NCBI GenBank assembly: GCA_945883695.1
Contig: CAMCYK010000011.1
Coordinates: 1 to 52,768 of the forward strand
DNA: 52,768 bases
From: Akkermansia muciniphila
GTDB taxonomy: Bacteria > Verrucomicrobiota > Verrucomicrobiia > Verrucomicrobiales > Akkermansiaceae
Direction of reading: 5' to 3'
In this document: piece after piece, positions 239 through 52,386 of the stretch
Position numbering within the stretch: position 1 is the stretch's first letter
Layout: each line of letters opens with the position of its first letter
Notes under the pieces: model-generated
Database searches by the model: none
Seen by the model: only the letters and a program-made list of their open reading frames with translations
What the model was told of the DNA's origin: nothing
Program-made: the position numbers and the translations under genes

Positions 239-285
239 TGCTCTTGCTCAACTACACGAGGTTCTGGTCCATCACGTTGCTCCGG

Positions 286-411: not shown

Positions 412-1119
412 GAAGAGGGTCACCGCTTGGCGGGGATGATCCGCCGGCACTTTTCGGAACTGGATGATTTCCGCGAGTCGATGTCCGGGCGGCCGGTTGG
501 GGTCCGGATGGGAGCCGCGGCGAGCGAGCTGGATTGGATGGTCTTGCCCAGGATGGCCGGGTGCCGGGAAGCCCTCGGGGGTGTGGTGCTGGAGCTGGAG
601 CAATCCCGCAGCGGCGAAGTGGCCCGTGGCGTGGCGGACGGCCGGCTGGATTTCGGGATCGTCCGCGACGACGCCGCGCCGGCGGGGATGAAGCGGTGGA
701 AACTCGGGCGGATCGGCTACTCGCTGTTCGCCCCCAAGGCGGCGTGGAAGGGTGGCGGTGGGATCGAAGGAGTGTTCGCGCGGCATCCCTTCGGCGAGCT
801 GCTTCCCGGTGGACAGTTCCATGATCGGTATCGCGGGCTACTCGCGGCGCGGAAATGGTCACCGCGGGTGATTGCCCGGGTCGGTTCGTTCATCCGGTTG
901 GCCCGCTTGGTCCGTGCCGACGGGGTGGCGGCGGTGCTGCCTAGGACGGCGACGGGTGAATTCGATCCGGCCAAAGTGCAGGCGATGCCCCTCCCGTGGA
1001 GTCACGAGCGGCCGATGGTGCTGCTGGCGAACCCGCGGAGCCTCGACCGGGCCGGGCTGAGGCCGGGTATCGCGGTGGCGCCTTCGAAGGTGCTGGCGTG
1101 GTCGGGTGCTTCGGACTGA
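405..1119 (+). pseudogene. LysR-type regulator, effector-binding domain only (5'-truncated)
   Basis: The frame ending at 1119 reads, from about EEGHRLAGMIRRHFSELDDF onward, like the linker helix and substrate-binding domain of a LysR-family regulator (DGRLDFGIVRDD, then the RLARLVRADGVAAVLP helix). The N-terminal winged helix-turn-helix that should precede it is missing: upstream residues are unrelated His/Pro/Gln-rich sequence. The open frame could start at ATG 163, but that start lies inside another gene's tail and would give a nonsense N-terminus. I therefore call it a truncated, presumably non-functional gene. A divergent functional LysR protein cannot be fully excluded. Confidence 0.5.
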
Positions 1120-1551
1120 GATCCGCAAGCCTGCTCCCGGCCAGTCCGCGAGAAGGCGGATGGGGGACTGGCGGAGCCGCTTCCTGGGCGGGGTGGCCGC
1201 CGACATCCCGGCCGAGACCAGCACCGAGAGGGTCACCACGGCAAATCCACGAAACCCAATGGTGTTAGAAACTAGCATCTATTGACTATCCTTTGAACCT
1301 GCCTGAAGAAGCCCGCGAATCAGCGTCAACGACAATCCTCGCGAGCATGCATCATCCCGGGACGACGCTTCTCTCCGCCTTTGTGGCAAGACCTATTGGT
1401 AGAACCGGCAGCGCGGAAAGTTTCCCGTCCCGGGAGGTCGGAATTGATCGACAGATTTCCGCCAATCTTCACCTTTTCGTTCGTAGTCCGTGACTCCGGC
1501 TCACGCGCCCCGCGATCCTCGATTCGCCCGTTTTCCCACTTCGCCCGCCCC
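1120..1551. other. Intergenic region upstream of the giant RCC1 gene
   Basis: This stretch of about 430 bp has no convincing gene. It holds a hairpin at 1141-1171 just after the LysR remnant. No good -35/-10 pair or Shine-Dalgarno site stands out before ATG 1552. The frame of the giant gene is open back to 1381, but that leader lacks a start with a signal peptide, so I regard it as 5' untranslated DNA. Confidence 0.4.
1141..1171. repeat. REP-like stem-loop
   Basis: CCAGTCC at 1141-1147 is the exact reverse complement of GGACTGG at 1165-1171. An inner CCGC/GCGG pairing encloses a 6-nt loop. The AGTCCGC-N6-GCGGA core closely resembles a second hairpin at 25985-26002, which suggests a dispersed element rather than a simple terminator. 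There is no T-run. Confidence 0.35.
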
Positions 1552-4500
1552 ATGAAACGAAGCACCCTGCTGTTCCGTCCGCTGATCTGTTGGTTGACGA
1601 TGTTGACCGTCGCTCCCGTTTCGGCGGCGACCGTCGAAGTCACCTACAACAATGCCGCGGACATTCCCGTGACGACGGCCAGCCACACGGCGTCAGGCAA
1701 CACCCTGGACTTCCGGCTCAACTTCGCGCCCGCCGTCGGGACCATGCTCACCGTCGTCAATGTCACCGGCTCCGGCCCCATCCAGGGGACTTACGACAAC
1801 CTGGCACAAGGGCAGCGGGTCGATCTCACGTTCAACGGGATCCGCTATCCCTTTTTCGCCAACTATTTCGGCGGCAGCGGCAACGACCTGGTGCTGGCAT
1901 GGGGCAGCAGCCGGCCCTTGGTCTGGGGAGACAACAACTACGGCTATCTGGGACTCGATCATACCCTGGCGGTCCGGATTCCCACCGCGGTGCTGCCAAC
2001 CGGCGTCCTGAAAGGCAAGATCCTGAGCCGCGCGGCCATCGGGGCGAGCCACACCGTCGTGCTCGCCACCGACGGCTCGCTGTTCGCCTGGGGCGACAAT
2101 TCGGAGGGCCAGCTCGGCAACGACCGGATGGGCGAGAACAGCCTGGTGCCCTTGGCCGTCGACCGGTCGGGAGCGCTTGCCGGCAAGACCGTCGTTTCAT
2201 TGGTCGCCGGCCAGACATTCACGCTCGCGCTCTGCTCCGACGGCACCCTCGTCACCTGGGGCGGCAACAACTCCGGAACGGCGGGCAACGGAAGCTCCAG
2301 CGACTCCCCGGTACCGACGGCGGTGGACCAGGCAGGAGTCCTCGCGGGAAGGCGAGTGGTTTCGATCGTGGCTGGCTCGGAATCCTGCTTCGCGCTTTGT
2401 TCGGATGGCACCTTGGCCGCCTGGGGCAACAACGTGACGGGGCAGCTCGGGGATGGCAGCAACACCAACCGCTCGCGCCCGGTCCTGGTGTCGAAGACCG
2501 GTGCCCTCGCGGGAAAGACCATTATCGCGGTGGCCTCGGGACATCACCACACCTACGCCCTCTGTTCGGACGGCACGCTGGCCGCATGGGGGCGGAATTC
2601 CGAGGGGCAGCTCGGAAACAACACGACGACCGAATCCCTGATTCCGGTTCCGGTGGTTCGCACCGGCGTGCTCTCGGGCAAAACGATCACTTCGATATCG
2701 TGTGGCGCGCTCTTCGGAATGGCCCTCTGCTCCGACGGCACCCTGGCTTCCTGGGGGTCTAACAATTCCGGACAACTAGGAATCGGAAGCACCACGCTGA
2801 GCCGCGTGCCGGTCGCGGTGAACCGCAGCGGCGTCCTGTCGGGAAAAACCATCGTCTTCGCCACCGCAGGTTACAACCACGCCCACGCGCTTTGCTCCGA
2901 CGGCACGCTCGCTTCCTGGGGCCTCAATGACGCGAACCAGTTGGGCGACGACACCGGCACCACCCGCACCCTCCCGGTCCGTGTCGTTTCGACCGGATTG
3001 CGGGCAGGCGAACGCTTCCACGCGCTGGGATCCGGTGCAGCCGCCCGTCAAGGGTTGGTGCTGGCCGCCTCTCCTCCCCCCGCCACCCCGGTCACCCTCG
3101 CGGCCGACCCGATCGGCGACCAGCAGGCCACCCTCCGCGCGACGGCGAACGCGAACGGCACTGCCGCCACGGTTTCTTTCGAATACGGCACCACGACCGC
3201 CCTCGGCGGCACGGCCGCGGCCATCCCCGCGAGCGTCAATGGCAGCACCACCACCGCGGTCAGCGCCAACCTCGGCGGGCTCCTCCCTGCCACGACCTAC
3301 CACTACCGCGTGGTGGCCAGCGGGACGGGCGGGGACGCCGCCGGGGAAACGCTGAGCTTCACCACGGGCAGTTCCGCGGCACTCGCCACGCTTTCCACCA
3401 CGGCGGGCGAGCTCGCGCCTCTGTTCCAGACCCCGCTAACCAGCTATTGGCTCACTGTTTCCTCCGCCACCGCCGGGATCTCGCTCACTCCCACCGCCAC
3501 TCAAGCCGGTGCCGCCATCACTGTGGGTGGCAACCCGGCGGTCGCCGGCAGCCCCGGCCCGCTCCTGCCGCTGGCACCCGGTAACAACCAGATTCCGATC
3601 AAGGTGACTTCCGCCGATGGGACGACGGCATTCACCTACACCGTGCATGTTACCCGTCTTCCCGGGGTCTTCGCCATGGAGTCGGCGGCGGACGTTCCTA
3701 TCACCGCCACCAGCTTCGACCTCAATGGCAGGGAAGCGGTGCTGAGCCTCCGCCACGCCCCGGCTCCGGGTGCGCTCATCACATTGTTGAGATCCACCAG
3801 CCTCGACCCCATCCGTGGCAGCTTCTCCAACCTCGCCCAGGGGCAAGGTGTCGCTCTCACCCACCAGGGAGTCCGCTACGAATACGTCGCCGACTACTTC
3901 GGCGGCAGCGGCAACGACCTCGTCCTCCGCGGGGCGAACACCCGCGCGGTGGCCTGGGGGAGCAACTCGGGCAGCCAGCTCGGGTTCGCCACCCCGTCCC
4001 AGAGCAATTCCGCGCTTCCCGTCGACAGCTCCGGTGAGCTATCGGGAAAAACGATCACCGCCACCGCGGTGGGCAGCAACAGCAGCTTCGCCTTGGACTC
4101 GGACGGCGTCGTCTACTCGTGGGGACTGAACCCGTCCGGCCAGCTTGGAACCGGCGACCTCGTCACTTCCCCGGTTCCACGGAAAGTACTTGTGAGCGGC
4201 CCGTTGGCGGGAAAGCGGGTCGTCGCCATCGACGCCGGTAACAACCACGCGTTAGCCCTCTGTTCCGACGGGACCCTGCTCGCATGGGGAAGCAACAACG
4301 ACGGACAGCTCGGCATCGGCAGCACCACCCGCAGCCTGCTGGCGGTCGACGTGGACCGGACCGGAGTGCTCGCCGGCAAGACGGTCGTCCAGATGGTCGC
4401 CAGCGGAAATTTCAGCATGGCACTTTGCAGTGACGGGACCATCGCCGCCTGGGGTGCGAACGAAGCGGGACAACTGGGAGACGGCACGGTCGGCAACCGC

Positions 4501-7500
4501 CTGAGGCCGGTCGAGGTCGTGAGATCGGGCTACTTGAAGGACCGCGGAGTCGTGCAAATCACCGCGGGCGAAAGTTTCGCGCTGGCGCTGCTCGACGATG
4601 GGACGCTCGCCGGATGGGGCCGCAATGACAACGGTCATCTCGGCGACGGCACCTCGACCTACCGCAAGTTACCGGTTGCCGCGGGGATCGGAGGAGCACT
4701 CGCAGGCAAGGCCGTCGTCCAGATCCGTGCGGGGTCCCAACATTCCCTCGCCCTTTGCAGCGACGGTACCATTGCCGGCTGGGGTGCCAACAACCAAGGC
4801 GCGCTGGGCAACAATACCACCTCGTCCACGACCCCGGTGCCGGTGGCCGTGGTCAGAACCGGCGTATTGTCGGGAAGAACGGTCACCAGCATCGCCGCCG
4901 GCAATCAGTTCAGCCTTGCAAGTTGTTCCGACGGAACCATGGCTGCCTGGGGATCTAACAGCTTCGGGGAACTCGGCAACGGGACGGCGGGCAGTTACAG
5001 CCAGGTTCCGGTTCTTCAAAACCCGTCGGTCGCTTATCCCGGGAGTTCCTTCCCGCCCTTGAGCGCTGCCCCGGCCGGCACCGTAACCGTGACCCTGCTG
5101 GCCTTCCCGCCGCCACCACAGGCAGTAACGCTCGCCGCATCCTCGATTCGGGATCTGGGAGCAACGCTTGAAGGCGAGGTGAATGCCAATGGCAATCCCG
5201 CGTCGGTCTCCTTCGAGTATGGCCTCACCGACAGCTACGGCACGGTGGTCACGGCGAATCCTTCCCCGGTCGCCGGGACGGCGCTTACCCCGTCGCGTGC
5301 CACATTGAACAATCTGCTGGGCGGCACGACCTACCACTATCGCGTGGTAGCATCCGGCCCCGGCGGAAAAGCCTTCGGCGCCGACGCTACCTTGACCACC
5401 ACCACGGCGGCAGCGCTCGCCAGCCTCGAGGCCGGTGGACATGCCGTCGAGCCTGCCTTCTCGCAAGAGATCTCCCGCTACGCCGTCACCGTGCCCGAGA
5501 CCGCGGACAGCATCGTGATCGGTGCAACGGCCGCCTCGCCCGGTGCCGCCGTCACGGTCAATGGCAGCCCGCGGGCGCCCGGAGGCAACCCGCTGGCTCT
5601 TTCCAGCGGCGCGAACCTCGTGACTATCCGGGTCACCTCGCCCGGTGGCGGCGACAGCCGCGATTACACCCTCACCGTCACCCGCTTGCCGGGAACCATC
5701 CTCCTGACCTCCGCCAACCAAGCACCGCTCGCTCTGAGCCGGCTCGATGCATCCGGGCAACACCTCGATTTCGAACTGCGGTACCTCCCGACGGCAGGCA
5801 CTTCCTTCCGCCTCTTCGACCTCGCCGGGTTCACCCCGATCAGCGGCCGCTTCGACAACCTCGCGCACGGCCAGCGGGTGACGCTGGCCTTTGGCGGCAT
5901 CGAGTTCCCCTTCGTCGCCAACTACTTCGGCGGCGATGGCAACGACCTGGTGCTTCAATGGGCGAACACCCGGCTGTTCGGCTGGGGCTTCAACACCTAC
6001 GGCCATGCCGGGCTTCCAGCCACCCCCTCGCTCACGTCACCGACACCCGCGGATCCGTCGGCACTGCTCCAAGACAAGACCATCCTGACGACGGCATCAG
6101 GTTCCTCGTTCACGATCATGCTGATGTCCGACGGCAGCGTGTTCGGCATCGGCGAGAACGGGAGCGGCCAGCTGGGGAACCCGGCCGCCGGAAGCCGGAC
6201 CTCCACCCCGGTGCCGGTCGACCGGTCCGGGATTCTCAATGGAAAAACCGTGACCACGATCGCCGTCGGCAGCACTCACACGCTGGCGCTGTGCTCCGAT
6301 GGCACGCTGGTCGCCTGGGGCGACAACAGTGTGGGACGACTGGGAACCGGCAACACCACCCGTAGCCCGGTGCCCATCGCCGTCGACCGCAGCGGCGCCC
6401 TGGCCGGCAAGCGGGTGATCGCGATCGGAGCAGGCACCGATCACTCGCTCGCCGCCTGCTCCGATGGAACCGTCGTCGCCTGGGGCCAGAACTTCAACGG
6501 CCAGCTTGGTAACGGCGTCCAGACCAACTCGCTGGTTCCGATTCCCGTCAACCGTGACGGCGCGCTGGCGGGCAAGACCGTGACCAAGCTTTTCGGCGGC
6601 AACTCCCACAGCATCGCGCTTTGCTCCGACGGCAGCCTCGCGGCCTGGGGCGCGAATGTCGCGGGCCAACTGGGTGACGGCACCACCACCAACCGCTTGC
6701 TTCCCGTTACCGTGACGTCGACCGGCATCCTTGCCGGAAAGACCCCGGCCGCCATCGCCGCCGGTGCCACCCACCAACTCTTGCTTTGCACGGATGGCAC
6801 CCTCGTCACCTGGGGCTCCAACTTCCGCGGGCAACTTGGGACCGGTAACACTACCAGCAGCTCCGTGCCGATCGCCGTAACCAAGACCGGAGGACTTGCG
6901 GGCAAGGCCGTCACCGCCATTGCGGCGGGAACCAGCCACAGCCTTGCTGTGTCCTCCGACGGCACCGGTGCCGCGTGGGGCTTCGATTCCAGCGGCCAAC
7001 TCGGCGACGGCGCGCCGCTCAGCAACAAGACGCTCCCCGTCGGGCTGGTCAACGACCAGCTCCGCGCCGGCGAGAGATTCATCCAAGTCTCCGCCGGTTC
7101 CGCCTCGGAACTCTCGCTCGGCATCGTGGCATCCCCCCCGCCTCCCACCGCGACCACGCTCGCCGCCACCGCGATCCGCGACACCGCGGCCACCCTCAAC
7201 GGAGCGGTCCTGCCCAACGGCAGCAGCACCACTTTGCGATTTGAATACGGCCTGACTTCTTCGTTCGGCATGACCGTGCCCGCAGTGCCGGGCACCGGGG
7301 CCGGCACCGGGGCTGTCGAAGCCAGCGCCCGGCTTCCCGGCCTGCTGCCCGGGACCACCTACCACTTCCGCCTTGTTGCGGAGGGCCCCGGCGCTACCGC
7401 CTTTGGCGATGACAGCGTTTTCACCACCACGACCAACGCCACCCTGACAGGCCTGAACCTCAGCGCCGGGATTCTATTCCCAGGCTTCGAGCGGACCCAT

Positions 7501-13500: not shown

Positions 13501-16500
13501 GACCGCACCTTCACCACCGGCACGCTCACCGCCTTGGCAGGACTTTCATTGAGCCACGGATCGCTGGCCCCGGACTTCGCACTCAGCCGCACCGCCTATA
13601 CCGCCACCGTTCCGTTCACGGCGGGCTCGATCACCGTCAGTCCGCGGGTAGCGACGCCCGGAGCCACGGTCACGGTTAACGATCGTCCGGTCGCCTCCGG
13701 CGGCGCGAGCGAGGCGCTGGACCTCGCCGTCGGCGAAAACGAAATCGTGATCGAGGTGCGCGCGCCCGGCGCTGCCGCAGGTTCGCAGCGCTACGTGGTG
13801 ACCGTGACCCGCCTGCCGGAGCTCCTTGTTCTGGATGCCGCCGGTGCCACCGGCGCGAGGTCCGACCGCTTCGGGATTGCCGGGCTGACGGCCGCCATCT
13901 CCCTGCGCCATGCCCCCGCCACCGGAGCCTCGCTGTTACTGTTGGACAGCACCGGCGGCGAGCCGATCGGCGGTCGCTTCGCCAATCTTGACCAAGGTCA
14001 GGAGATCGTCCTGGAACACGACGGCATCGCCTACCCGTTCGTCGCCAACTACCACGGCGGCGATGGCAACGACCTGGTCCTCCAATGGGCGAACACCCGG
14101 CTCGCGGGCTGGGGCAGCAACGGCAACGGGCAGCTCGGCGGCACTCTCGCGACCACCCAGACGGTGCCGGCCGACCTCCAGCTCTCCCCGGCCTTCGGCT
14201 CGCCCGTGATGGCTGCCGCGACCGGTTACCGGCATTCGCTGGCCTTGACCGCCGACGGCGAAATCCACGCCTGGGGCATCGACGATCGGGGCCAGCTCGG
14301 CCAGGCCGGCAAGACCGACAGCGCCTTCCCGCTCAAGGTGGACCGCTCCGGCATCCTGGCCGGCCGCCGGGTCGTCGCGATCGCCGCCGGCTACGGCCAC
14401 TCGCTCGCGCTGTGCGACGATGGCCAGGTCGCCAGCTGGGGATGGAATGGCGGCGGCCAACTGGGGGTGCCCGGCATCGAGGATCGCGCGGTGCCCGGCC
14501 GGGTCGAAACCACCGGTGTGCTGGCCGGCAAGCAGGTGGTGCGGATCGCCGCCGGCTCCTTTCACAATCTGGCCTTGTGCTCCGACGGCACGCTGGCCGC
14601 CTGGGGCTCCAACACCTTCGGCCAACTGGGCAACAACCTGTCGTCTGCCGCCTTCGTTCCGGTGCGGGTCGATCTCAACGGCGTGCTGGCCGGCAAGCGG
14701 ATCGTTGCCATCGCCGCCGGTTATCAGCACAGCCTCGCGCTCTGCTCCGACGGCACCCTGGCGGCGTGGGGGAACAACGAATCCGGCCAGCTTGGCATCG
14801 GCTCCATCGAAAGTCCGAAGCGCGTCCCGGTGCAGGTGATCACCACCGGGGCCCTGGCGGGGAAGACCGTGATCGGCATCGCCGCGGGCGACGATCACTC
14901 CCTCGCCTGGTGCTCGGACGGCAGCGCGGTGGCGTGGGGGACCAACAACGCCGGCCGGCTTGGCGACGGCACCACCACCCGGCGCGACGCGCCGGTTGCG
15001 GTGAACTCGAGCGGTGCCCTCGCCGGGAAGTCGGTCACCGCCATCACGGCGGGTGCCCATCACAGCCTCGCGCTGGCTGCCGACGGCAGCGCAATCGCCT
15101 GGGGCGACAATCCCTTCGGTCAACTGGGGATCAACAGCAACACCGGCGCTACCCTGCCCACCGCCGTCCACGGCGCCGGACTGGCAGCCGGCGAGCGCTT
15201 CATGACGCTCGTCGCGGGCCGTGCCTCCTTGCACACGCTCGCCCTGGTCGCCAGCCCGCCCAAGCCGCTGGCGGCCACGCTGGCTGCCGACGGAATCACC
15301 GGCGACGGAGCCACGCTGAGGGGCAGCGTGCGCCCGAACGGCGGCTCCGCCGACATCGCTTTCGAATACGGACTCACGCCCGACTACGGGCACCGGATCG
15401 AGGCGACGCCCGCCACCGCCGGCGGCACGGGCACCCTCCCGGCGTCGGCGCGGATCGAAGGCCTGATCTCCGGCGCAACCTATCACTACCGGATCCTCGC
15501 CACCTCGCCGGCGGGAGTTTTTGCGGGAGCAGACCGGACCTTCACCGCGGGCGACGACGCGGCGCTGGCTTCGCTGGTCACGAGCGCCGGAAGCTTCGAT
15601 CACCCGTTCACCCCCGGACGTTTGGAATACCGTGCGACCCTGCCCTTTGCCATTTCCAGCGTGACCGTCACCGCGGTCCCGGCGCGGGCCGGAGCCACGG
15701 TCGCCATCAATGGCGGCGGGGCGGCAACCGTCGCGGTGCCGGCCGGCGAAAGCACCATCACCGTCGAAGTGGCGGCCCCTTCCGGCACGCCGCGCCAGGC
15801 CTACCGCATCCACCTCACCCGCCTGCCGGAGACCTTCCGCTTCGCCACCGCGGGCGAGGTGCCGGTCAGGACCGCGCACTTCGCCCCCGCCGGACTCAGC
15901 GCCTCGTTCGAACTCGGTTTCGCCCCGCTTCCCGGCACCCGTCTGACCGTCGTGGAGAACACCGGCGACGGGCGGATCCGAGGGACCTTCGCCAATCTCG
16001 CCCAAGGCGAAATGGTGACCCTCGACTTCGGCGGGCGGAGTTACCGCTTCGCCGCGCACTACTTCGGCGGCGACGGCAACGACCTCGTCCTCGAATGGGC
16101 CTCGAACCGGCTTTTCGGCTGGGGCTTTGGCAGCACCCCGCGGAGCTTCCTGCCGACCCCGGCGGATCCTTCCGGCATCATCCCCCGCTCGCCGATTGTC
16201 GCGGTCGCCGCCGGCCAGAGCCACCGCATCACCTTGCATGCCGACGGGTCGCTCGCCGGGTGGGGAAGCAACGACGACGGTCAGTTGGGCAATGGCGCGT
16301 CGGGCACCAGCAGTACCACGCCGGTCGCCGTGGACCAGCGTGGCGTGCTGGCGGGCAAACAGGTGGTCCGCATCGCGGCCGGCGAGCGGCACACGCTCGC
16401 CCTCTGCTCCGACGGCACGGTGGCCGGGTGGGGTCACAATTTCTACGGAGCGATCGGACCCGCCGGTGCAAGCCGCCAAGCGGTCCCGGTGGCGATCCCG

Positions 16501-19500
16501 GTCCAGTCGCTGGCCCCGGGCAAAGCCGTCGTCGGCATCGCGGCCGGCGCCATCAGCAGCTACGCGTGGTTCGATGACGGAACCATCGCGGCCTGGGGTT
16601 CGAATCAATACGGTCAGCTCGGCAACAACAGCACCTTCAACAGCCCGGCCCCGGTTCTCGTTTCCCGATCCGGGGCGCTGGCCGGAATCAAAGTGGTCTC
16701 GGTGGTCGCCGGTGATCACTACGCCGCCGCGCTTGGCTCCGACGGCACCGTGGCTTCGTGGGGCCGCAACGCGGACGGCCAGTTGGGAATCAACTCGACC
16801 GTCAACAGCCCCGTCCCGGTCGCCGTGGACCGGCTGGGCGCGCTCGGCGGAAAAACCGTCGTCGCACTGGCGGGCGGCAGCAGTTTCCAGCTCGCCCGCT
16901 GCTCCGACGGCAGCGTCGCCGGCTGGGGCCAGAACACCAACCGCCAGCTCGCAACGTCGGTCGGCAGCCGCAGCACGGTGCCGGTCGGGGTCCAGATGAC
17001 GGGAGCACTGGACGGCAAGACGATTCTGGAAATCGCCGCCGGGGACGACCACGCGTGGGCCCGTTGTTCGGACGGCTCCGTCGTCGCATGGGGGGGCAAT
17101 ATCAATGGCCAGCTCGGCGACAACACCACGGTCAACAACAACCTGCCGGTCCTCGTTTCGACCGCGAACTTGCTGCCCGGTGAACGCCTCACGGCGCTGG
17201 CCTCCTGTCCTCTGGCCACCTCGAGTTATGCCATCGGCTCGCTGCCACAACTTCCGCTCGTCACCACTCTCGCGGCAAGCGCCATCCGCAACACCGTGGC
17301 GACACTTCACGGCGCGGTCCTGCCCGATGGCGTGGCGGGCGAGCTGTATTTCGACTGCGGCCCCACCGAAAATTACGGGCTGACCATCGCCGCCAACCCG
17401 GCCTCGGTGGACGGCAGCGCGGCCGTTCAGGCCAGCGCTCCGGTGACCGGCATGCGGCCCGGCTCCACCTGGCACTTCCGGCTCCGCCTCGTCACCCCCC
17501 ACGGCAGCTACCTGGGCGAAGACCGCACTTTCACCACCGCCACCGATGCCACCTTGGCATCCCTCTCCACCCGCGCCGGCAACCTGACTCCGGAGTTCTC
17601 GCCGCCCACCACCCGCTACGCGCTGACCGTGCCGCATACGACCGGGTCCCTCGTTCTCGATCCCACCGCCTCGGTCCCCGGCGCGGTCGTCTCGGTCAAT
17701 GATGCCGTGCCGACGACTCCCGTCCTGCTCGAGACCGGATCCAACGTCCTCAAGGTGCAAGTCACCGGACCGGACAGCGGTGAAACCTTCCGCTATCTTG
17801 TCATCGTGACCCGGTTGCCGGAGCTCCTGCGCTTCGACTCCCCGGAGGACGTCCCGCTGGTCGCCGGACAGTTCGCGGCGGCCGCCGCGCTTCCCCCGGT
17901 CCGGCTCGGTTTCATCCCCCAGCCCGGAACCGTGCTGAGGCTCTTGGACAATCGCGGCGGGGATCCGATTTCCGGCCGCTTCCCCGGTCTTCCTCACGGC
18001 GGGACCCTTGACCTCGAATCAGGCGGCAGCGCCTATCGCTTCGTCGTCAATTACCACGGCGGCGACGGCAACGATCTGGTCCTCCAGTGGGCGAACTCCC
18101 GCGTGTTCGGCTGGGGCGAAAGTCAGCAGGGACAACTCGGCAACGGCCTCCGGGGGGGGGCGACCCCGACCCCGACCCTCGCCGCCATCGGCGGAACCCT
18201 CGCCGGGAAAGAAGTCCTGGCCACCGCGACGGGCGGCTTCCACAGCCTCGCCCAGGCCACCGACGGAACCCTGGTTGCCTGGGGCTCCGGCTCCGGCGGG
18301 AAGCTCGGCAACGGCAGCAACAATGACGCTCTCGCGCCCGTTGCGGTCGATCCCACCGGCGCGCTGGCCGGCAAGTCGGTGATCGCCCTGGTGCCGGGCC
18401 GCGATTTCAGCGTGGCGCTCTGCGATGATGGCACCCTGGCCTCGTGGGGCGACAACGGCAGCGGACAACTCGGCAACGGCACCACGGCATCCAGTGCCGT
18501 CCCGGTCGCCGTCCTCCCGGTCGGCGCCCTCGCCGGCAAGCAGGTCAGCTCGGTCGTCACCGGCGCCAGATTCGCCCTCGCCCGCTGCTCCGACGGCTCG
18601 CTCGCCGCCTGGGGTGCCAATGGCGACGGACAACTCGGCAACGGCGGCCGGCCCGCCGGAATGATGCCCGTAACCGTTGTCTCCAACGGCGCCCTCGCCG
18701 GGAAACACGTCACCGCCATCACCGCCGGCGAAAGCCACTGCCTCGCCCTCTGCGAGGACGGCACGATGGTCGCCTGGGGACTCAATACCCACGGTCAACT
18801 GGGCGACAACAGCACCGTCACCCGCCCGGCACCGGTCGCCGTCGACCACGGTGGAGCGCTTGCGGGAAAGCACGTGATCGCGATCGCCGCCGGCAACCAT
18901 CATTCGCTGGCGCTTTGCTCGGACGGCAGCCTCTTCGCCTGGGGACTCAACTCCGATGGACAGCTTGGCAACCACGGCACCACCAACAGCTTGGTCCCCA
19001 CGCCGGTCGATCTCTCGGGGGCGCTCGCCGGCAAAACCATCCGCTCGATCCTCGCGGGCACGACCTTCAGCCTCGCTTCCTGCACCGACGGCACGATCGC
19101 CGCCTGGGGGAGCAACAACCGCGGTCAACTCGGCGACTTGACCCTTGCCAAACGCCCCGCTCCCGTCCTCACGTCCACCATCACGCTGCGGGCCGGCGAG
19201 CAGTGGATGGACTTGCCCGCCCGTCAATCCGGACTCCACACCGTCATGCTCGCCGGGGCCCCGCTCGCTTCCGCCGCCACGCTGGCCGCCCGCGACATCA
19301 CCGGCACCCGTGCCACCTTGCAGGGCACCGTGCAGGCGAACCGGAACGCGGTCGCCGTCTCCTTCGAATACGGGCTCGATGCCACTTACGGCGAAACGAC
19401 CGCCGCGCTGCCTGCCAGTGCGAGCGGTATCGGCTCCACCGCCGCAAGCGCCCGCTTGTCCGGCCTGCGGCCCGGCACGACCTACCATTTCCGCACCGTG

Positions 19501-21630
19501 GCGGAAGGCAGGGGCGGCATCGTCCGCGGCGAAGACCGGACCTTCACCACCCTCAGCGACAACGCGCTGCTCGCGGCCCTGAACGTCAACGAAGGCGTGC
19601 TCGGACCGGACTTCGACTCACAGGTCACCACCTATCACGTGTCGGTCCCCGCCGCCACCGGCAGCGTCACGGTGAATCCGGTGACCGTCCACCCGCGAGC
19701 CACCTTCGAAATCCCCGGGGCTACCGCGGGAAGCATCGCCCTGACCGGACAACGTACGACCGTGACCATCACCGTCACGGCTGAAGACCGTGAGACACTG
19801 AAGCACTACAACGTCATCGTGACCCGCCTGCCCGAGACCTTCGTCCTCGGCGACGACGGCAACGCGCCACTGAGCGTCGACGGTTTCTCCGCCCGCGGCT
19901 ACCCGGCCATCCTTACCCTCAACCACGCTCCCGTCCCCGGCACGATCCTCACGGTGATCGACAACACCGGCCTCGGCTTCATCCACGGCACCTTCAGCAA
20001 CCTCGCCCGCGGCCAACGTGTCGCCCTCGCATTCGACGGCCTCGCCTACGACTTCGTCGCCAACTACCACGGCGGCGATGGCAACGACCTGGTCCTGCAG
20101 TGGGCGAATACCCGCGCGTTCGGCTGGGGCTTGAACTCCCACGGCCAGCTCGGCGACGGAACTACCATGGGTCGACTTTCCCCCGTCGCGTCTGACCTGT
20201 CCGGCATGATTTCCGACAAGACAATCACCGCGATCTCCGCCGGCTACCTCCACAGCCTGGCCCTCTGCTCCGATGGCAGTGTCGCCGCATGGGGATTCAA
20301 TGCGCAAGGCCAGCTCGGCAACGGCACCACCACCGTCGCCAGCATCCCCGTCGCGGTCGACTTTACCGATGCCGCCGGCGAGGTGATCGCGATTTCCGCC
20401 GGGCCCTTCCACAACCTCGCCCTCCGCACCGACGGACGCATCGCGGCCTGGGGCTACAACAACCACGGCCAGCTCGGTACCGGCGACAAAGTGACCTACC
20501 TCCGCCCCGTGCTGGTGCCCGCCGTCGGCGCGCTGGCCGGCAAGCAGGTCGTCGCCGTCGCGGCCGGCACTTATCACAGCTTCGCGTTGTGCGCCGATGG
20601 CAAGGTCGCCGCCTGGGGCTATAACGACGAGGGTGAACTCGGTGACGGAACCACCACCTCGACCTCCGTTCCCGTGGCCGTCGATACCTCCGGCATTCTG
20701 GCGGGCAAGTCGGTCGCGAAGATCGCCGCCGGCCAGTATCACCTGCTCGCCCTCTGCACCGATGGCACCCTGGTATCCTGGGGCTACAACGCGCGCGGCC
20801 AGCTCGGGACCGGCACCGCCACCGACGCCCCATCGCCGGTCGCGGTCGACGTTTCCGGCCTCTTGTCCGGCAGAACCGTCGTGGATCTCGCAGCCGGCGA
20901 TTCGCATAGCGTCGTCCGCTGCGCCGACGGCACCGTCATCGCCTGGGGAAACAACCTCCGCTTCCAGCTTGGCAACGGTGGCGTCTTGGCGAGTTCCGTG
21001 CCGGTCGCTATCGATCTCTCCGCCCTTCCCGCCGGCAGCACCACAGCCTCGGTCAGCGCCGGTCGGAATCACAATCTCACACGCCTCCGTGATGGCAAGA
21101 TCGTGGCCTGGGGTGAGAATTCAAGCGGTCAGCTTGGCAACCTGGGCACGGCCGCAGCCTCCCGACCGGTCAGGGTCGATCTCGCCACCACTCCCGCGGG
21201 CAGCCGTGCCATGTTCGTGGCATCGGGCTCCTCCGCCCAGCATAGCCTGGCCGTCCTGGGACTGCCCGGCTCGCGTCCGGCGACGCGTGATCCCGTTCTC
21301 GCGGCGCTGGCGGGGAACAGCGGGCTGGATACGGATCAAGACGGCATCCCCGACCTGATCGAACTCGCCTTCGGTCTCGACCCCGCGGTTGCCCATGACG
21401 GCTTGATACCCCGGCCGCAGATCATTGACGGCAAGCTCGGCACCTCTTTCAACGAACCGCCGGGCGTCAGCGGCTATATCTATGGTGCGGAGTGCAGCGC
21501 GACCCTGGAGCCGGGGTCCTGGCAGGCGGTGCCCGACAGCGGTTCCGGCACCTGGCACGAGTTCAAGGTCCCGGTGGGCCCGGCTCCCCGGATGTTCATG
21601 CGCCTGACCGTCACTCCTACCCGACCTTGA
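1552..21630 (+). CDS. Giant exported protein with ten seven-repeat RCC1 propellers
   Basis: This is a single uninterrupted frame of 6,692 residues. ATG 1552 is chosen because it opens a signal peptide (MKRSTLLF, hydrophobic core, cleavage near VSAA). Ten units of about 670-678 residues follow. Each holds a beta-sandwich ending in (F/H)GGxGNDLVL, seven RCC1 repeats of about 53 residues (AGxxHSLALCSDGTLAAWG, GxNxxGQLG), an Fn3-like domain (FEYGLT, TTYHYRVVA) and a cadherin-like sandwich ending VTRLP; the tenth unit lacks the last two. Near residue 6593 comes DTDQDGIPDLIELAFGLDP, a calcium-binding type-3-like motif, then a short beta-rich tail. There is no autotransporter barrel, LPxTG or PEP-CTERM motif. 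Seven RCC1 repeats normally close one propeller, so ten propellers are inferred. It is probably extracellular or envelope-bound; the ligand is unknown. It converges with the autotransporter gene at 21725. Confidence 0.93.
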   Translation: MKRSTLLFRPLICWLTMLTVAPVSAATVEVTYNNAADIPVTTASHTASGNTLDFRLNFAPAVGTMLTVVNVTGSGPIQGTYDNLAQGQRVDLTFNGIRYPFFANYFGGSGNDLVLAWGSSRPLVWGDNNYGYLGLDHTLAVRIPTAVLPTGVLKGKILSRAAIGASHTVVLATDGSLFAWGDNSEGQLGNDRMGENSLVPLAVDRSGALAGKTVVSLVAGQTFTLALCSDGTLVTWGGNNSGTAGNGSSSDSPVPTAVDQAGVLAGRRVVSIVAGSESCFALCSDGTLAAWGNNVTGQLGDGSNTNRSRPVLVSKTGALAGKTIIAVASGHHHTYALCSDGTLAAWGRNSEGQLGNNTTTESLIPVPVVRTGVLSGKTITSISCGALFGMALCSDGTLASWGSNNSGQLGIGSTTLSRVPVAVNRSGVLSGKTIVFATAGYNHAHALCSDGTLASWGLNDANQLGDDTGTTRTLPVRVVSTGLRAGERFHALGSGAAARQGLVLAASPPPATPVTLAADPIGDQQATLRATANANGTAATVSFEYGTTTALGGTAAAIPASVNGSTTTAVSANLGGLLPATTYHYRVVASGTGGDAAGETLSFTTGSSAALATLSTTAGELAPLFQTPLTSYWLTVSSATAGISLTPTATQAGAAITVGGNPAVAGSPGPLLPLAPGNNQIPIKVTSADGTTAFTYTVHVTRLPGVFAMESAADVPITATSFDLNGREAVLSLRHAPAPGALITLLRSTSLDPIRGSFSNLAQGQGVALTHQGVRYEYVADYFGGSGNDLVLRGANTRAVAWGSNSGSQLGFATPSQSNSALPVDSSGELSGKTITATAVGSNSSFALDSDGVVYSWGLNPSGQLGTGDLVTSPVPRKVLVSGPLAGKRVVAIDAGNNHALALCSDGTLLAWGSNNDGQLGIGSTTRSLLAVDVDRTGVLAGKTVVQMVASGNFSMALCSDGTIAAWGANEAGQLGDGTVGNRLRPVEVVRSGYLKDRGVVQITAGESFALALLDDGTLAGWGRNDNGHLGDGTSTYRKLPVAAGIGGALAGKAVVQIRAGSQHSLALCSDGTIAGWGANNQGALGNNTTSSTTPVPVAVVRTGVLSGRTVTSIAAGNQFSLASCSDGTMAAWGSNSFGELGNGTAGSYSQVPVLQNPSVAYPGSSFPPLSAAPAGTVTVTLLAFPPPPQAVTLAASSIRDLGATLEGEVNANGNPASVSFEYGLTDSYGTVVTANPSPVAGTALTPSRATLNNLLGGTTYHYRVVASGPGGKAFGADATLTTTTAAALASLEAGGHAVEPAFSQEISRYAVTVPETADSIVIGATAASPGAAVTVNGSPRAPGGNPLALSSGANLVTIRVTSPGGGDSRDYTLTVTRLPGTILLTSANQAPLALSRLDASGQHLDFELRYLPTAGTSFRLFDLAGFTPISGRFDNLAHGQRVTLAFGGIEFPFVANYFGGDGNDLVLQWANTRLFGWGFNTYGHAGLPATPSLTSPTPADPSALLQDKTILTTASGSSFTIMLMSDGSVFGIGENGSGQLGNPAAGSRTSTPVPVDRSGILNGKTVTTIAVGSTHTLALCSDGTLVAWGDNSVGRLGTGNTTRSPVPIAVDRSGALAGKRVIAIGAGTDHSLAACSDGTVVAWGQNFNGQLGNGVQTNSLVPIPVNRDGALAGKTVTKLFGGNSHSIALCSDGSLAAWGANVAGQLGDGTTTNRLLPVTVTSTGILAGKTPAAIAAGATHQLLLCTDGTLVTWGSNFRGQLGTGNTTSSSVPIAVTKTGGLAGKAVTAIAAGTSHSLAVSSDGTGAAWGFDSSGQLGDGAPLSNKTLPVGLVNDQLRAGERFIQVSAGSASELSLGIVASPPPPTATTLAATAIRDTAATLNGAVLPNGSSTTLRFEYGLTSSFGMTVPAVPGTGAGTGAVEASARLPGLLPGTTYHFRLVAEGPGATAFGDDSVFTTTTNATLTGLNLSAGILFPGFERTHATYIATVSSGVDSITVAPVPTHPEAVISVNGTVIPSGGASGPIPLSAGGIAVEIQVTSADRVDSMTYRVAVTRLPGAFTVPNPDSVPLTAGELIASGNAPPFVLGHAPQVGSSLKVIDITGSGPIRGRFDNLAQGQRVGLEFGGVLYPFVANYSGGTGNDLVLEWGNTRPLAWGNNGSSQSGTGISTASTLLVPTPVETGGALAGKTIHRWASGSEHVIALCLDGSLVAWGRNNSGMLGDGTNTERPTAINVPFNGALAGKSVVAVAAGSYHSLALCSDGSIAAWGSNISGQLGNNSITNSLTPVAVDTSGVLAGKPVIAIAAGSNFSLALCQDGTIAAWGQSNSGQLGNNTTTFSRVPVAVVSTGVLAGRRPVALAAGHEFALALCDDGQIAGWGSNSFGQLGDNTTTQRNVPVLADRGGVLAGKTVTAIAAGVAHSLARLSDGTLAAWGSNASGVLGDGTTTNRRVPVLINLSGVLAGKTVTDMEGGGSHTLAVCSDGTLAAWGRNQAGEVGDITTTTRLLPVLVNTTGLQPGERFIPGIIASDLNSSHAIVASPPAPQAASLAASSVKDSGAILNATVRPNGSSATVSFEFGLTPFLGTTLTAEPATLGGSTAQSAGVAVAGLTPGTTYHYRVVSSGPGGIARGEILSFATTTRATLAGLTPSAGVMGPDFDPKSTAYWLTVPAATQGISFTPVVAEPGATVRIAGSPVASGQAGPTVALAPGNNSVEVAVTSADGTANLTYHVTVTRIPESLAFGSAAEVPLRVAGFHATGSPAIILGFAPPTGTDLMLVENSGRGFIRGAFEGLAQGGLLKLSHGGITYEFSVNYHGGDGNDLVLQWANMALFGWGDNTSGAAGHHGPTRYTPVAVADDQGILAGKTVSALSTGSSHTLALCTDGTLAAWGSNSDGQLGNGGTSSSNVPVAVDLGGELAGKTVVAIATGRDHSLVLCSDGTVAAWGSNILGQLGAWESSRSRTPVVLEKTGALGGRKVVAIRAGEYFNLALCEDGTLAAWGYNDRGQLGDGTKTDRRLPVRVGDNSILGGRRISSIAAGGTHVVAITEDGSLFAWGGNGQGQLGNGNTSDSSSPVPVNTGGLLAGKRVVALAAGSNHNLALCADGTLAVWGANGSGQLGIGSTTNSPLPVGVNRGGVLAGKTIRGIAAHNTSSYAVCDDGSIAAWGFNQWGQLGDNTTTNRNQPVLVQNSVLKPGERFVRLADGPFSTHINAIAALPPRATVDTLAAAVTGDSSATLNGSVRANSSDATAWFAYGTTPAYGQRAAATPENVAAGTTTAITASLAGLQGGTTYHFRAVASGSGGISYGESRTFTTGNAAALASLTVGGATLSPAFSPALGSYSATVPFTAGRITVTARSLSAAAEIRINGSQPNPGSALADVDLAVGTNTVEVTVNAGGGTATRNYRITVMRFPESFVYRDGTERPLVMERFAGSGPAPSLALEFAPGPGTGLTVVEQTGLDPFADRFSNLAQGEVVVLHHNGVNYRFVANYFGGSGNDLVLEWANRRIVGWGQNSDGELGHPDPRDMTTPVATVADAFPPDGTLFAVDAAGTGNHTLALGSDGVVYAWGGNQAGQLGNGGTTRTTTPAAVDRSGILAGKRVVKIAAGGDHSLALCEDGTLVAWGSNGNGQLGTGDTVNHTRPVAVDRTGVLAGKTIIAIAASYYASFAVCADGTVAAWGGNGSGMLGNGLNSGSFTRPVEVNRGGVLLGKTVVALAPGENHCFALCSDGTFAAWGQNTYGQLGNNSNADSPVPVLVDRGGVLAGKTVVQVSAGRAHGLAVCSDGTVAGWGRNNFGEVGNNSTTQSGVPVAITSSGSLAGKTVTAVDASIFNSLALCSDGSAATWGYNPWGQLGNGTTSDSPVPVAVLPGVIRPGERIIAGTAAVGSHFALVASPPAPTAETLAATLIGDHTATVNGRAGGNGETTALTFEYGLTDTYGSTLAADPATISGTAVTGSSATLTGLLAGTTYHYRLVASNDGGTTRGADRTFTTGTLTALAGLSLSHGSLAPDFALSRTAYTATVPFTAGSITVSPRVATPGATVTVNDRPVASGGASEALDLAVGENEIVIEVRAPGAAAGSQRYVVTVTRLPELLVLDAAGATGARSDRFGIAGLTAAISLRHAPATGASLLLLDSTGGEPIGGRFANLDQGQEIVLEHDGIAYPFVANYHGGDGNDLVLQWANTRLAGWGSNGNGQLGGTLATTQTVPADLQLSPAFGSPVMAAATGYRHSLALTADGEIHAWGIDDRGQLGQAGKTDSAFPLKVDRSGILAGRRVVAIAAGYGHSLALCDDGQVASWGWNGGGQLGVPGIEDRAVPGRVETTGVLAGKQVVRIAAGSFHNLALCSDGTLAAWGSNTFGQLGNNLSSAAFVPVRVDLNGVLAGKRIVAIAAGYQHSLALCSDGTLAAWGNNESGQLGIGSIESPKRVPVQVITTGALAGKTVIGIAAGDDHSLAWCSDGSAVAWGTNNAGRLGDGTTTRRDAPVAVNSSGALAGKSVTAITAGAHHSLALAADGSAIAWGDNPFGQLGINSNTGATLPTAVHGAGLAAGERFMTLVAGRASLHTLALVASPPKPLAATLAADGITGDGATLRGSVRPNGGSADIAFEYGLTPDYGHRIEATPATAGGTGTLPASARIEGLISGATYHYRILATSPAGVFAGADRTFTAGDDAALASLVTSAGSFDHPFTPGRLEYRATLPFAISSVTVTAVPARAGATVAINGGGAATVAVPAGESTITVEVAAPSGTPRQAYRIHLTRLPETFRFATAGEVPVRTAHFAPAGLSASFELGFAPLPGTRLTVVENTGDGRIRGTFANLAQGEMVTLDFGGRSYRFAAHYFGGDGNDLVLEWASNRLFGWGFGSTPRSFLPTPADPSGIIPRSPIVAVAAGQSHRITLHADGSLAGWGSNDDGQLGNGASGTSSTTPVAVDQRGVLAGKQVVRIAAGERHTLALCSDGTVAGWGHNFYGAIGPAGASRQAVPVAIPVQSLAPGKAVVGIAAGAISSYAWFDDGTIAAWGSNQYGQLGNNSTFNSPAPVLVSRSGALAGIKVVSVVAGDHYAAALGSDGTVASWGRNADGQLGINSTVNSPVPVAVDRLGALGGKTVVALAGGSSFQLARCSDGSVAGWGQNTNRQLATSVGSRSTVPVGVQMTGALDGKTILEIAAGDDHAWARCSDGSVVAWGGNINGQLGDNTTVNNNLPVLVSTANLLPGERLTALASCPLATSSYAIGSLPQLPLVTTLAASAIRNTVATLHGAVLPDGVAGELYFDCGPTENYGLTIAANPASVDGSAAVQASAPVTGMRPGSTWHFRLRLVTPHGSYLGEDRTFTTATDATLASLSTRAGNLTPEFSPPTTRYALTVPHTTGSLVLDPTASVPGAVVSVNDAVPTTPVLLETGSNVLKVQVTGPDSGETFRYLVIVTRLPELLRFDSPEDVPLVAGQFAAAAALPPVRLGFIPQPGTVLRLLDNRGGDPISGRFPGLPHGGTLDLESGGSAYRFVVNYHGGDGNDLVLQWANSRVFGWGESQQGQLGNGLRGGATPTPTLAAIGGTLAGKEVLATATGGFHSLAQATDGTLVAWGSGSGGKLGNGSNNDALAPVAVDPTGALAGKSVIALVPGRDFSVALCDDGTLASWGDNGSGQLGNGTTASSAVPVAVLPVGALAGKQVSSVVTGARFALARCSDGSLAAWGANGDGQLGNGGRPAGMMPVTVVSNGALAGKHVTAITAGESHCLALCEDGTMVAWGLNTHGQLGDNSTVTRPAPVAVDHGGALAGKHVIAIAAGNHHSLALCSDGSLFAWGLNSDGQLGNHGTTNSLVPTPVDLSGALAGKTIRSILAGTTFSLASCTDGTIAAWGSNNRGQLGDLTLAKRPAPVLTSTITLRAGEQWMDLPARQSGLHTVMLAGAPLASAATLAARDITGTRATLQGTVQANRNAVAVSFEYGLDATYGETTAALPASASGIGSTAASARLSGLRPGTTYHFRTVAEGRGGIVRGEDRTFTTLSDNALLAALNVNEGVLGPDFDSQVTTYHVSVPAATGSVTVNPVTVHPRATFEIPGATAGSIALTGQRTTVTITVTAEDRETLKHYNVIVTRLPETFVLGDDGNAPLSVDGFSARGYPAILTLNHAPVPGTILTVIDNTGLGFIHGTFSNLARGQRVALAFDGLAYDFVANYHGGDGNDLVLQWANTRAFGWGLNSHGQLGDGTTMGRLSPVASDLSGMISDKTITAISAGYLHSLALCSDGSVAAWGFNAQGQLGNGTTTVASIPVAVDFTDAAGEVIAISAGPFHNLALRTDGRIAAWGYNNHGQLGTGDKVTYLRPVLVPAVGALAGKQVVAVAAGTYHSFALCADGKVAAWGYNDEGELGDGTTTSTSVPVAVDTSGILAGKSVAKIAAGQYHLLALCTDGTLVSWGYNARGQLGTGTATDAPSPVAVDVSGLLSGRTVVDLAAGDSHSVVRCADGTVIAWGNNLRFQLGNGGVLASSVPVAIDLSALPAGSTTASVSAGRNHNLTRLRDGKIVAWGENSSGQLGNLGTAAASRPVRVDLATTPAGSRAMFVASGSSAQHSLAVLGLPGSRPATRDPVLAALAGNSGLDTDQDGIPDLIELAFGLDPAVAHDGLIPRPQIIDGKLGTSFNEPPGVSGYIYGAECSATLEPGSWQAVPDSGSGTWHEFKVPVGPAPRMFMRLTVTPTRP
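1627..21255 (+). repeat. Ten tandem coding units of about 2.0 kb
   Basis: The GND codons of the unit-defining motif begin (AAC codon) at 1882, 3913, 5941, 7975, 10006, 12034, 14068, 16078, 18070 and 20083. Spacings are 2031, 2028, 2034, 2031, 2028, 2034, 2010, 1992 and 2013 bp, all multiples of three. Each unit contains seven shorter RCC1 repeats of roughly 160 bp, 70 in all. The units clearly differ in sequence, so the expansion does not look very recent. Confidence 0.9.
18152..18160 (+). repeat. G9 homopolymer inside the giant gene
   Basis: Nine consecutive G residues lie in the ninth unit, encoding part of LRGGAT, just after the first RCC1 motif of that unit. Slippage by one base would shift the frame and remove about the last 17% of the protein. 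Confidence 0.8.
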
Positions 21631-28624: not shown

Positions 28625-28678
28625 AATCCTGATAATCCTGATAATCCTGATAATCCTGATAATCCTGATAATCCTGAT
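28625..28678 (+). repeat. Six perfect copies of a 9-bp unit
   Basis: The unit AATCCTGAT occurs six times without variation, directly before ATG 28685 of the sulfotransferase gene. A 9-bp unit changes length without shifting frame: if GTG 28613 is the real start, it encodes (Asn-Pro-Asp)6; otherwise it forms part of the leader. Confidence 0.95.
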
Positions 28679-52382: not shown

Positions 52383-52386
52383 GAGC

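What the first reader, a model, noticed from the sequence alone, without database searches (positions are those of the whole stretch)
1552..21630. One polypeptide that appears to carry ten seven-bladed RCC1 propellers
Sequence: I counted RCC1 motifs (xWGxNxxGQLG type) in every unit and found exactly seven in all ten, 70 in total, in one 6,692-residue frame with no stop. Knowledge: seven RCC1 repeats close one beta-propeller. Inference: a bead-chain of ten propellers joined by Fn3-like and cadherin-like sandwiches, exported. I know of no characterised protein with this architecture; the number of blades per unit being held constant suggests selection on each propeller as a folded unit.
Basis: partly seen in the sequence, partly recalled or inferred. 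Interest (0 to 1): 0.8.

Follow-up and report, generated by a model that had tools for sequence, protein, structure and literature searches.

The report
Giant exported chain of ten propellers
A bacterium of the same family as Akkermansia encodes one very long, probably exported protein built like a string of ten ring-shaped propeller domains; relatives have similar chains of one to at least twelve rings, several of them beside an outer-membrane autotransporter gene, and the likeliest role is recognition or sticking at the cell surface.

Summary
One frame (1552-21630, 6,692 aa) holds ten units, each a ~91-aa "collar" plus seven RCC1 blades, joined by nine Fn3 + Cadherin-like linkers. AlphaFold2 gives propellers for the three units modelled (unit 10: pLDDT 92, TM 0.92 to a HERC2 RCC1-like domain). 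Units share only 53-58% DNA, and an 11-unit array is colinear in two other species, so misassembly is very unlikely.

New here: (1) it belongs to a Verrucomicrobiota family with 1 to at least 12 collar-led propellers; 168 of 172 blade runs are 7 or 14. (2) Of 13 strong homologues of the neighbouring autotransporter (21725-24472; window's own included), 8 lie beside such an array, 1 does not, 4 are cut by contig ends. (3) Conserved propellers are under purifying selection (dN/dS 0.25); most of the fastest positions lie on one face; unequal synonymous divergence suggests propeller replacement.

Best explanation: an exported, surface-held recognition/adhesion chain. Architecture is near certain; function is inference. 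Nearest printed precedent: bee-gut Bifidobacterium surface proteins with 2-4 RCC1 domains (PMC4449606). "Ten" is not special.

The parts
1552..1626 (+). Putative Sec signal peptide (25 aa, ...PVSA|ATVEV)
   Evidence: By eye from the translation; similar N-termini in G097 and G098. No signal-peptide program was run.
1630..3057 (+). Unit 1: collar (1630-1902) + seven-bladed RCC1 propeller
3058..3660 (+). Linker 1: Fn3-like + Cadherin-like (PF12733)
3661..5088 (+). Unit 2: collar + seven-bladed RCC1 propeller
5089..5688 (+). Linker 2: Fn3-like + Cadherin-like
5689..7116 (+). Unit 3: collar + seven-bladed RCC1 propeller (second motif FGIGEN lacks the W)
7117..7722 (+). Linker 3: Fn3-like + Cadherin-like
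7723..9150 (+). Unit 4: collar + seven-bladed RCC1 propeller
9151..9753 (+). Linker 4: Fn3-like + Cadherin-like
9754..11181 (+). Unit 5: collar + seven-bladed RCC1 propeller (modelled)
11182..11781 (+). Linker 5: Fn3-like + Cadherin-like (modelled)
11782..13209 (+). Unit 6: collar + seven-bladed RCC1 propeller (modelled)
13210..13815 (+). Linker 6: Fn3-like + Cadherin-like
13816..15243 (+). Unit 7: collar + seven-bladed RCC1 propeller
15244..15825 (+). Linker 7: Fn3-like + Cadherin-like
15826..17253 (+). Unit 8: collar + seven-bladed RCC1 propeller (first motif degenerate)
17254..17817 (+). Linker 8: Fn3-like + Cadherin-like
17818..19245 (+). Unit 9: collar + seven-bladed RCC1 propeller
19246..19830 (+). 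Linker 9: Fn3-like + Cadherin-like
19831..21258 (+). Unit 10: terminal collar + propeller (modelled), the unit shared by orthologues of different array lengths
   Evidence: model; tree; BLAST
21259..21627 (+). C-terminal domain (D-rich stretch + beta-rich domain), with six further matches in this genome
21725..24472 (-). Autotransporter gene (915 aa; PATR + C-terminal beta-domain PF03797, ends in F), neighbour of the array; TTG 24472 or ATG 24463 as start

Best explanation
The gene makes a giant exported bead-chain: each bead is a closed seven-bladed RCC1 propeller opened by a collar domain, and beads are spaced by Fn3-like and Cadherin-like sandwiches. I propose that the chain is held at the cell surface, with the conserved terminal unit and C-terminal domain at the cell-proximal end and the neighbouring autotransporter as its outer-membrane partner or anchor, and that each propeller uses one variable face to bind a ligand (a protein or glycan of a surface, prey, host or particle). 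Many beads would give avidity and several specificities; arrays change by gain, loss and replacement of whole propeller cassettes. Shown: architecture, family, colinear inheritance and purifying selection in relatives, gene neighbourhood. Inferred: export, surface location, link to the autotransporter, ligand binding.
For: Architecture. Family with 1 to at least 12 collar-led propellers. Blade runs quantised (163 of 172 are 7, five are 14). Purifying selection on six conserved propellers between G098 and G313, dN/dS 0.25. Colinear 11-unit arrays in these two species; five of the six units held of G296 match G313 units 6-10 in order. Homologous autotransporter next to the array in the window, G012, G097, G098, G375, G336:C802, G307 and G313:C17, and two partial autotransporters next to collar-propeller genes (G380:C96, G387:C164). 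Terminal unit orthologous: the 11 best non-self matches of unit 10 all fall on the last unit of their protein, 10 of the 11 with the matching C-terminal domain; quick tree, SH-aLRT 100 for the window, G097, G098 and L027 terminal units. Columns 6, 8, 9, 44, 45, among the most variable, lie in the A-B and C-D loops, i.e. on one face by meander topology. RCC1-domain proteins at a bacterial surface, evolving by duplication and divergence: PMC4449606. RCC1-type propeller as secreted binder: BLIP-II, as stated in PMC9218822.
Against: No ligand, no expression or localisation data. The variable face columns are free positions of the RCC1 motif anyway; I picked the set after seeing the entropies, other variable columns (28 in the D-A loop, 19, 21) are outside the set, and dN/dS of the set is 0.56, below 1, so diversifying selection is not shown. 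The autotransporter lies on the other side and in another orientation in the window (convergent) than in the relatives; arrays elsewhere (G026, G084, G066, G134, G099, G100) come from genomes with no match to it at E 1e-10, so the partner is not universal. One second copy (G313:C34) has no array beside it, and four copies cut at their 5' side show none on the visible 3' side. G336's copy did not reach the PF03797 model. No Pfam or NCBIfam name for the C-terminal domain, so 'anchor' is a guess.
Confidence: 0.5

Rival explanations
1. Passive stalk or coat: the propellers are rigid spacers in a long surface fibre or sheath, without specific ligands.
For: Regular units, uniform linkers and variable unit number fit a length-setting fibre; low pTM between beads fits a flexible chain.
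Against: Some propellers keep their own identity across species (units 3, 4, 6 of G098 at 74-82% to the same unit of G313, while other units listed for them are mostly 50-59%). A pure spacer would not need that. But units 1, 5, 7, 8, 10 do not show it.
Confidence: 0.2
2. Scaffold or inhibitor in the medium: the chain is released and each propeller binds a different enzyme or polymer, like a multi-headed BLIP-II or a cellulosome scaffold.
For: RCC1-type propellers as secreted protein binders are known (BLIP-II; PMC9218822 passage). No membrane anchor was recognised in the chain itself.
Against: The recurring autotransporter neighbour points to the outer membrane; no dockerin-type hit in the window chain.
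Confidence: 0.15
3. Toxin or injected effector: the array is a carrier for a terminal toxic domain.
For: Long carriers with C-terminal toxins are known in general (PMC3482391 passages).
Against: No toxin, protease or enzyme domain in the Pfam scan of the chain; the C-terminal domain also ends other proteins of the genome. The single RCC1 hit in PMC3482391 is a virus strain name.
Confidence: 0.03
4. Assembly or annotation artefact: the repeat number was created by misassembly of a repetitive gene.
For: Draft assembly (391 contigs); repetitive gene.
Against: Units share 53-58% DNA and the longest exact internal repeat is 44 bases; an independent 11-unit array keeps unit order in two species.
Confidence: 0.02

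Closest known systems
RCC1-repeat surface proteins of bee-gut Bifidobacterium (PMC4449606, passages read)
   Same: Several RCC1 domains of about 7 repeats in one surface protein; duplicated and diverging.
   Different: 2-4 domains per protein, LPxTG-anchored, with Flg_new repeats before each RCC1 domain; here 10 (family up to at least 12), a collar domain, Fn3/Cadherin-like linkers, and an autotransporter neighbour.
HERC1/HERC2 and other eukaryotic RCC1-like domain proteins (structures)
   Same: Same seven-bladed fold; HERC2 has at least three RCC1-like domains (structures titled first, 2 and third).
   Different: Intracellular ubiquitin ligases (recalled); no chain of ten; no collar or Fn3/Cadherin-like linkers known to me.
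BLIP-II (secreted bacterial RCC1-type beta-lactamase inhibitor; PMC9218822 passage)
   Same: Secreted bacterial RCC1-type propeller that binds a protein.
   Different: Not a chain (recalled: a single propeller); not compared by sequence here.
Multi-RCC1 proteins of Chryseobacterium (L093, L096)
   Same: Chains of five RCC1 runs in one frame of about 2,240 aa.
   Different: Nine of ten runs show six repeats with this model, no collar detected; another phylum (recalled).
Giant bacterial surface proteins in general (huge-protein survey PMC11573180, passages)
   Same: Over 5,000 aa; surface/attachment is a main class among bacterial huge proteins.
   Different: That paper's main text has no hit for RCC1 or propeller.

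Membership tests
RCC1-repeat beta-propeller superfamily | RCC1 repeats recognised by PF00415/PF25390 | tested here: met
   PF25390 E 2.8e-228, 5.9e-240 and 3.3e-281 for the three pieces; 21, 22 and 24 PF00415 stretches
RCC1-repeat beta-propeller superfamily | Seven four-stranded blades closing one ring | tested here: met
   Units 5, 6, 10 modelled; best TM by target 0.92 to 7q40, 0.91 for the pair model. Seven other units by sequence only.
Bee Bifidobacterium-type RCC1 surface proteins | Several RCC1 domains of about seven repeats per protein | tested here: met
Bee Bifidobacterium-type RCC1 surface proteins | LPxTG cell-wall anchor and Flg_new repeats before each RCC1 domain | tested here: not met
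   No Flg_new in the Pfam scan of the chain; C-terminus ends RLTVTPTRP with no LPxTG, by eye
Type Va autotransporter (for the neighbour 21725-24472) | C-terminal beta-domain (PF03797) with terminal aromatic residue | tested here: met
   (E 4.6e-15, residues 645-893); F915 invariant in six rows
Type V-secreted protein (for the giant itself) | Own beta-barrel or TPS domain | tested here: not met
   No such Pfam domain in the chain
Polymorphic toxin | C-terminal toxin domain with immunity gene | tested here: not met
   No toxin domain; no dedicated search for immunity genes
Exported protein | Sec signal peptide | tested here: inconclusive
   By eye in the window, G097 and G098; no predictor available

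The most novel reading that the evidence does not exclude
The arrays are a cassette-based recognition repertoire: each propeller is an exchangeable ligand-binding module with a variable face. Single propellers are replaced while their linkers are inherited, giving each species its own ordered set of up to a dozen or more specificities on one chain, displayed with a dedicated autotransporter partner (a bacterial analogue, in logic only, of a modular receptor repertoire).
Probability: 0.3. Interest if true: 0.78.

Novelty: new variant of a known kind. Interest (0 to 1): 0.62.

Why it matters
It shows bacterial genes that string many complete propellers into one probably exported chain, with propeller number free to vary (1 to at least 12) while blade number stays at seven. 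That makes the question 'what is selected: the blade, the ring or the chain?' testable on natural variants, including genes with the same terminal unit and 1, 2, 4, 6, 10 or 11 propellers, one unit with five blades and one without a propeller. The recurring autotransporter neighbour gives a concrete, testable partner for display of giant proteins in Verrucomicrobiota. Signs of single-propeller replacement make it a candidate for a modular recognition system.

Tried and rejected
VIA-align was not on the machine; I kept the Foldseek result. Rfam (0 hits) and tRNA scan (0 genes): nothing. NCBIfam: no name for the window ends. Polymorphic-toxin reading: no support. Paired-cysteine or metal-ring idea for the repeated Cys: not testable, as the tools gave no coordinates. 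A test for diversifying selection on the variable face: dN/dS 0.56, not above 1. In one search a looser threshold gave 8 blades in three units, and 1 or 3 in two; with the threshold no 8 remains, and I report. Other window neighbours near the arrays: LysR and SASA gave no match in the flanks searched; the AraC-type regulator (30%) and the frame 32639-36271 (35-37%) matched in the flank of G012 only; the second DUF5122 frame matched at many places inside arrays with its last part. None of these was followed.

Papers: literature searches (PMC open-licence library only; no preprints). No listing, abstract start or passage that I saw describes RCC1 chains in Verrucomicrobiota; most listed papers were not opened. 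Read: passages only of PMC9218822, PMC4449606, PMC11573180, PMC3482391. All other papers: search listing only. Stevens and Paoli 2008 was seen only in a reference list.

Full report
1. The observation. The window frame 1552-21630 (+) is open for 6,692 codons and begins with a putative signal peptide. Ten collar anchors ([YF]xGGxGNDLVL) lie 664-678 aa apart, and chaining RCC1 motifs from each anchor gives seven in all ten units; 48 of 60 spacings are exactly 55 aa. The strict motif occurs 62 times, against a mean of 0.01 in 200 shuffles. Pfam names RCC1, the RCC1-like domain, Cadherin-like PF12733 and Fn3-like models. The unit is: collar (about 91 aa, no Pfam family seen for it), seven blades (about 385 aa), Fn3-like, Cadherin-like; unit 10 lacks the last two and ends in a C-terminal domain of about 124 aa.

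2. Is each bead a closed ring? Two AlphaFold2 jobs were run on window sequences aligned with relatives. Unit 10 plus C-terminus: mean pLDDT 92.2, pTM 0.80. Foldseek against the PDB puts it on UVR8, RCC1 and HERC RCC1-like domains; for 7q40_A (HERC2) TM by target length is 0.92, rmsd 2.2. Units 5-6 with their linker: pLDDT 89.5, pTM 0.55; best PDB matches again UVR8 and HERC domains, TM by target up to 0.91. The low pTM means the placing of one bead to the next is not predicted. Seven of ten units were not modelled.

3. Not an assembly artefact. Units are 41-51% identical in protein and 53-58% in DNA; the longest exact internal repeat is 44 bases. Between units, four-fold sites are nearly random (0.461 against 0.419 expected) while the protein is kept. 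Blades at the same place in different units are more alike (0.458) than blades at different places (0.418); none of 1,000 relabellings reached this (maximum 0.435). The best partner of a blade in another unit has the same place in 20 of 70 cases, against 10 expected. This suggests duplication of whole propellers rather than of single blades; blades 1 and 7 are the most diverged.

4. A family. In 97 genomes (own and relatives) searched with a 700-aa piece, 60 had a match, many of them only to the RCC1 part. With the collar profile, 122 of 386 genomes of the order had a match; at most 13 candidates per genome were scored. Frames read: G097 7,724 aa (12 collars, 11 propellers, one unit without any), G098 7,231 aa (11 units, the first with five blades), G313 7,355 aa (11 units), 5,947 aa (8), 2,635 aa (4) and 1,553 aa (2) on one contig, G336 8,362 aa (12 complete, then the contig ends), G026 3,665 aa (4), and others with 1-6 collar-led units. 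G134:C42 has four runs of 14 and one of 7. Over 45 collar-bearing proteins and 182 collars tallied (runs cut by a contig's 3' end were dropped first), 10 collars had no RCC1 run; of the other 172, 163 had 7 blades, 5 had 14, and 4 had 3, 5, 6 and 6. The blade model was built from the window, and the set was chosen by likeness to it. Named relatives are labelled Akkermansiaceae and Chthoniobacteraceae, one being titled an Akkermansia muciniphila MAG. That record has the contig length of G026:C2, and L047 lies in G097, whose contig is that of G364; G026 and G364 are listed as the window's family.

5. Orthologues and change. The eleven best non-self matches of unit 10 all fall on the last collar-propeller unit of their protein, and ten of the eleven share the C-terminal domain; those ten carry from 1 to 11 propellers. 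The C-terminal domain also matches five collar proteins whose unit 10 match is weaker. The quick tree of 77 units agrees for the window, G097, G098 and L027 terminal units (SH-aLRT 100), while 40 of 74 inner branches are under 80. G098 and G313 arrays are colinear in all eleven units; units 1-5 of the six held of G296 match G313 units 6-10 in order, and its last is of the terminal type. Window units 1-9 have no clear counterpart (best 50-56% to scattered units). Between G098 and G313, propeller identity runs from 0.45 to 0.82, linkers and tail from 0.52 to 0.78. Nei-Gojobori on blades gives dN/dS 0.25 for six units that I grouped as conserved (2, 3, 4, 6, 9, 11) and 0.32 for the other five; dS is 0.54-0.58 in units 3 and 4, 0.81 outside blades, and 1.46, 1.52 and 2.3 in units 5, 7 and 1. 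Unequal dS within one gene suggests that some propellers were replaced by recombination; saturation makes the high values rough. A propeller type is shared at 71-75% by G097 unit 8, G098 unit 6, G313 unit 6 and G296 unit 1, and the likeness between the first two falls to 0.4-0.6 beyond the propeller.

6. One face varies most. The model shows four strands per blade. The highest-entropy columns among the 70 window blades are 45, 44, 9, 6, then 28, 8, 19, 21; between the six conserved orthologous units, columns 45, 8, 9, 21, 6, 44 change most. Columns 44-45 (A-B) and 6, 8, 9 (C-D) lie on one face by the topology of a four-stranded meander (established knowledge, not measured on coordinates); 28 and 21 do not belong to that set. 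The set was chosen after seeing the entropies. Its dN/dS is 0.56, against 0.14 for the B-C turn and 0.23 for the D-A loop. This is relaxed or faster change, not proof of diversifying selection, and these are free positions of the RCC1 motif in any case.

7. The neighbour. The gene at 21725-24472 (-) encodes an autotransporter (PF03797, PATR). In the 386 genomes its strong homologues (E 1.5e-91 or better, the window's own included) number 13 in 12 genomes (only two candidates per genome were scored there, so copies may be missed), and all 12 genomes also hold collars. Eight lie next to a collar-propeller gene (window, G012, G097=G364, G098=G357, G375, G336:C802, G307, G313:C17), one does not (G313:C34, about 7-9 kb seen on either side), and four are cut by a contig end on their 5' side and show no array on the visible 3' side (G387:C307, G296:C181, G380:C307, G298:C31). 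That G097 is G364 and G098 is G357 is read from equal contig numbers, positions and frames. Two partial copies (G380:C96, G387:C164) are also next to a collar-propeller gene. Of three weaker homologues read, G098:C263 has no array near; G307:C286 and G017:C111 are cut on their 5' side and show none on the other. The remaining weak ones (five, some more) were not looked at. Orientation: convergent in the window, same strand with the autotransporter first in G012 and G097, divergent in the rest. The beta-domain was found in five of seven relatives' pieces scanned; of the other two, one is a piece cut before it and one (G336) simply misses the model. Genomes with other collar-propeller arrays (G026, G084, G066, G134, G099, G100) have no match at E 1e-10; G087 has one weak match. 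Relatedness of the genomes is not corrected for.

8. Mechanism. Shown: a giant frame of propellers, a family with varying bead number kept by selection where it could be measured, and a recurring autotransporter neighbour. Inferred: export (signal peptide by eye), surface holding through the terminal unit, C-terminal domain or the autotransporter, and ligand binding by one face. The C-terminal domain has six other matches in the same genome, at the ends of proteins that look different (three of the six scanned with Pfam), which fits a sorting or docking module but does not prove it.

9. Against what is known. The closest printed kind that I found is the RCC1-repeat surface proteins of bee-gut Bifidobacterium: on average seven repeats per domain, 2-4 domains per protein, LPxTG-anchored, evolving by duplication and divergence (PMC4449606, passages). 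The window's chain may work like these but does not share their anchor or Flg_new repeats, and has far more beads. I therefore file it as a new variant of a known kind. My searches showed no description of it; they cover open-licence papers only, and most listed papers were not opened.

Noticed in passing
1552-21630, blade column 51: 44 of the 52 cysteines of the chain sit at one blade position, at the end of strand B before the SDG turn; G097 and G098 show the same habit (61 of 92 and 51 of 87 Cys in CxDG), the C51 paralogue does not (2 Cys, 0 CxDG). The position changes little between conserved orthologous units (0.07). Unexplained for an exported protein.
   Followed up: partly
L001 (G000:C51), 2-5935: A second bead-chain gene in the same genome, cut at its 5' end, with three collar + seven-blade units but other linkers (Ig-like by eye) instead of Fn3/Cadherin-like.
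   Followed up: partly
L153, L136-L139 (G313:C17): Four collar-propeller genes (2, 8, 11 and 4 units) on one contig and strand.
   Followed up: partly
L140-L141 (G134:C42): Four runs of 14 blades and one of 7, with a collar only before each run; presumably pairs of abutting propellers.
   Followed up: no
L127-L128 (G098:C278) unit 1; L125-L126 (G097:C268) unit 6: Natural variants: a unit with only five blades, and a unit that has its collar and linker but no propeller.
   Followed up: partly
L002, L003, L004 (G000:C361, C281, C358): Very similar (by eye) single-propeller RCC1 genes with a long C-terminal part, cut by contig ends, suggesting a recent duplication.
   Followed up: no
L155 (G012:C148, 97001-117000): Beyond the autotransporter, G012 also holds relatives of the window's AraC-type regulator (30%) and of the frame 32639-36271 (35-37%), in the same order.
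   Followed up: no
L093 and L096 (Chryseobacterium): Five RCC1 runs in one frame of about 2,240 aa, nine of ten runs with six repeats detected: another lineage of propeller chains.
   Followed up: no
L078 (uncultured Clostridium): Frames of 978, 3,344 and 3,330 aa in a row with scattered RCC1 runs.
   Followed up: no
28625-28678: Perfect 9-base tandem repeat AATCCTGAT, six copies, inside overlapping open frames.
   Followed up: no
48787-52460: A ResIII helicase gene next to an Abi_2 gene, a possible defence pair.
   Followed up: no
24546-25865: Two short frames with DUF5122 propeller repeats; the last part of the second also matches places inside the bead-chain arrays of relatives.
   Followed up: no
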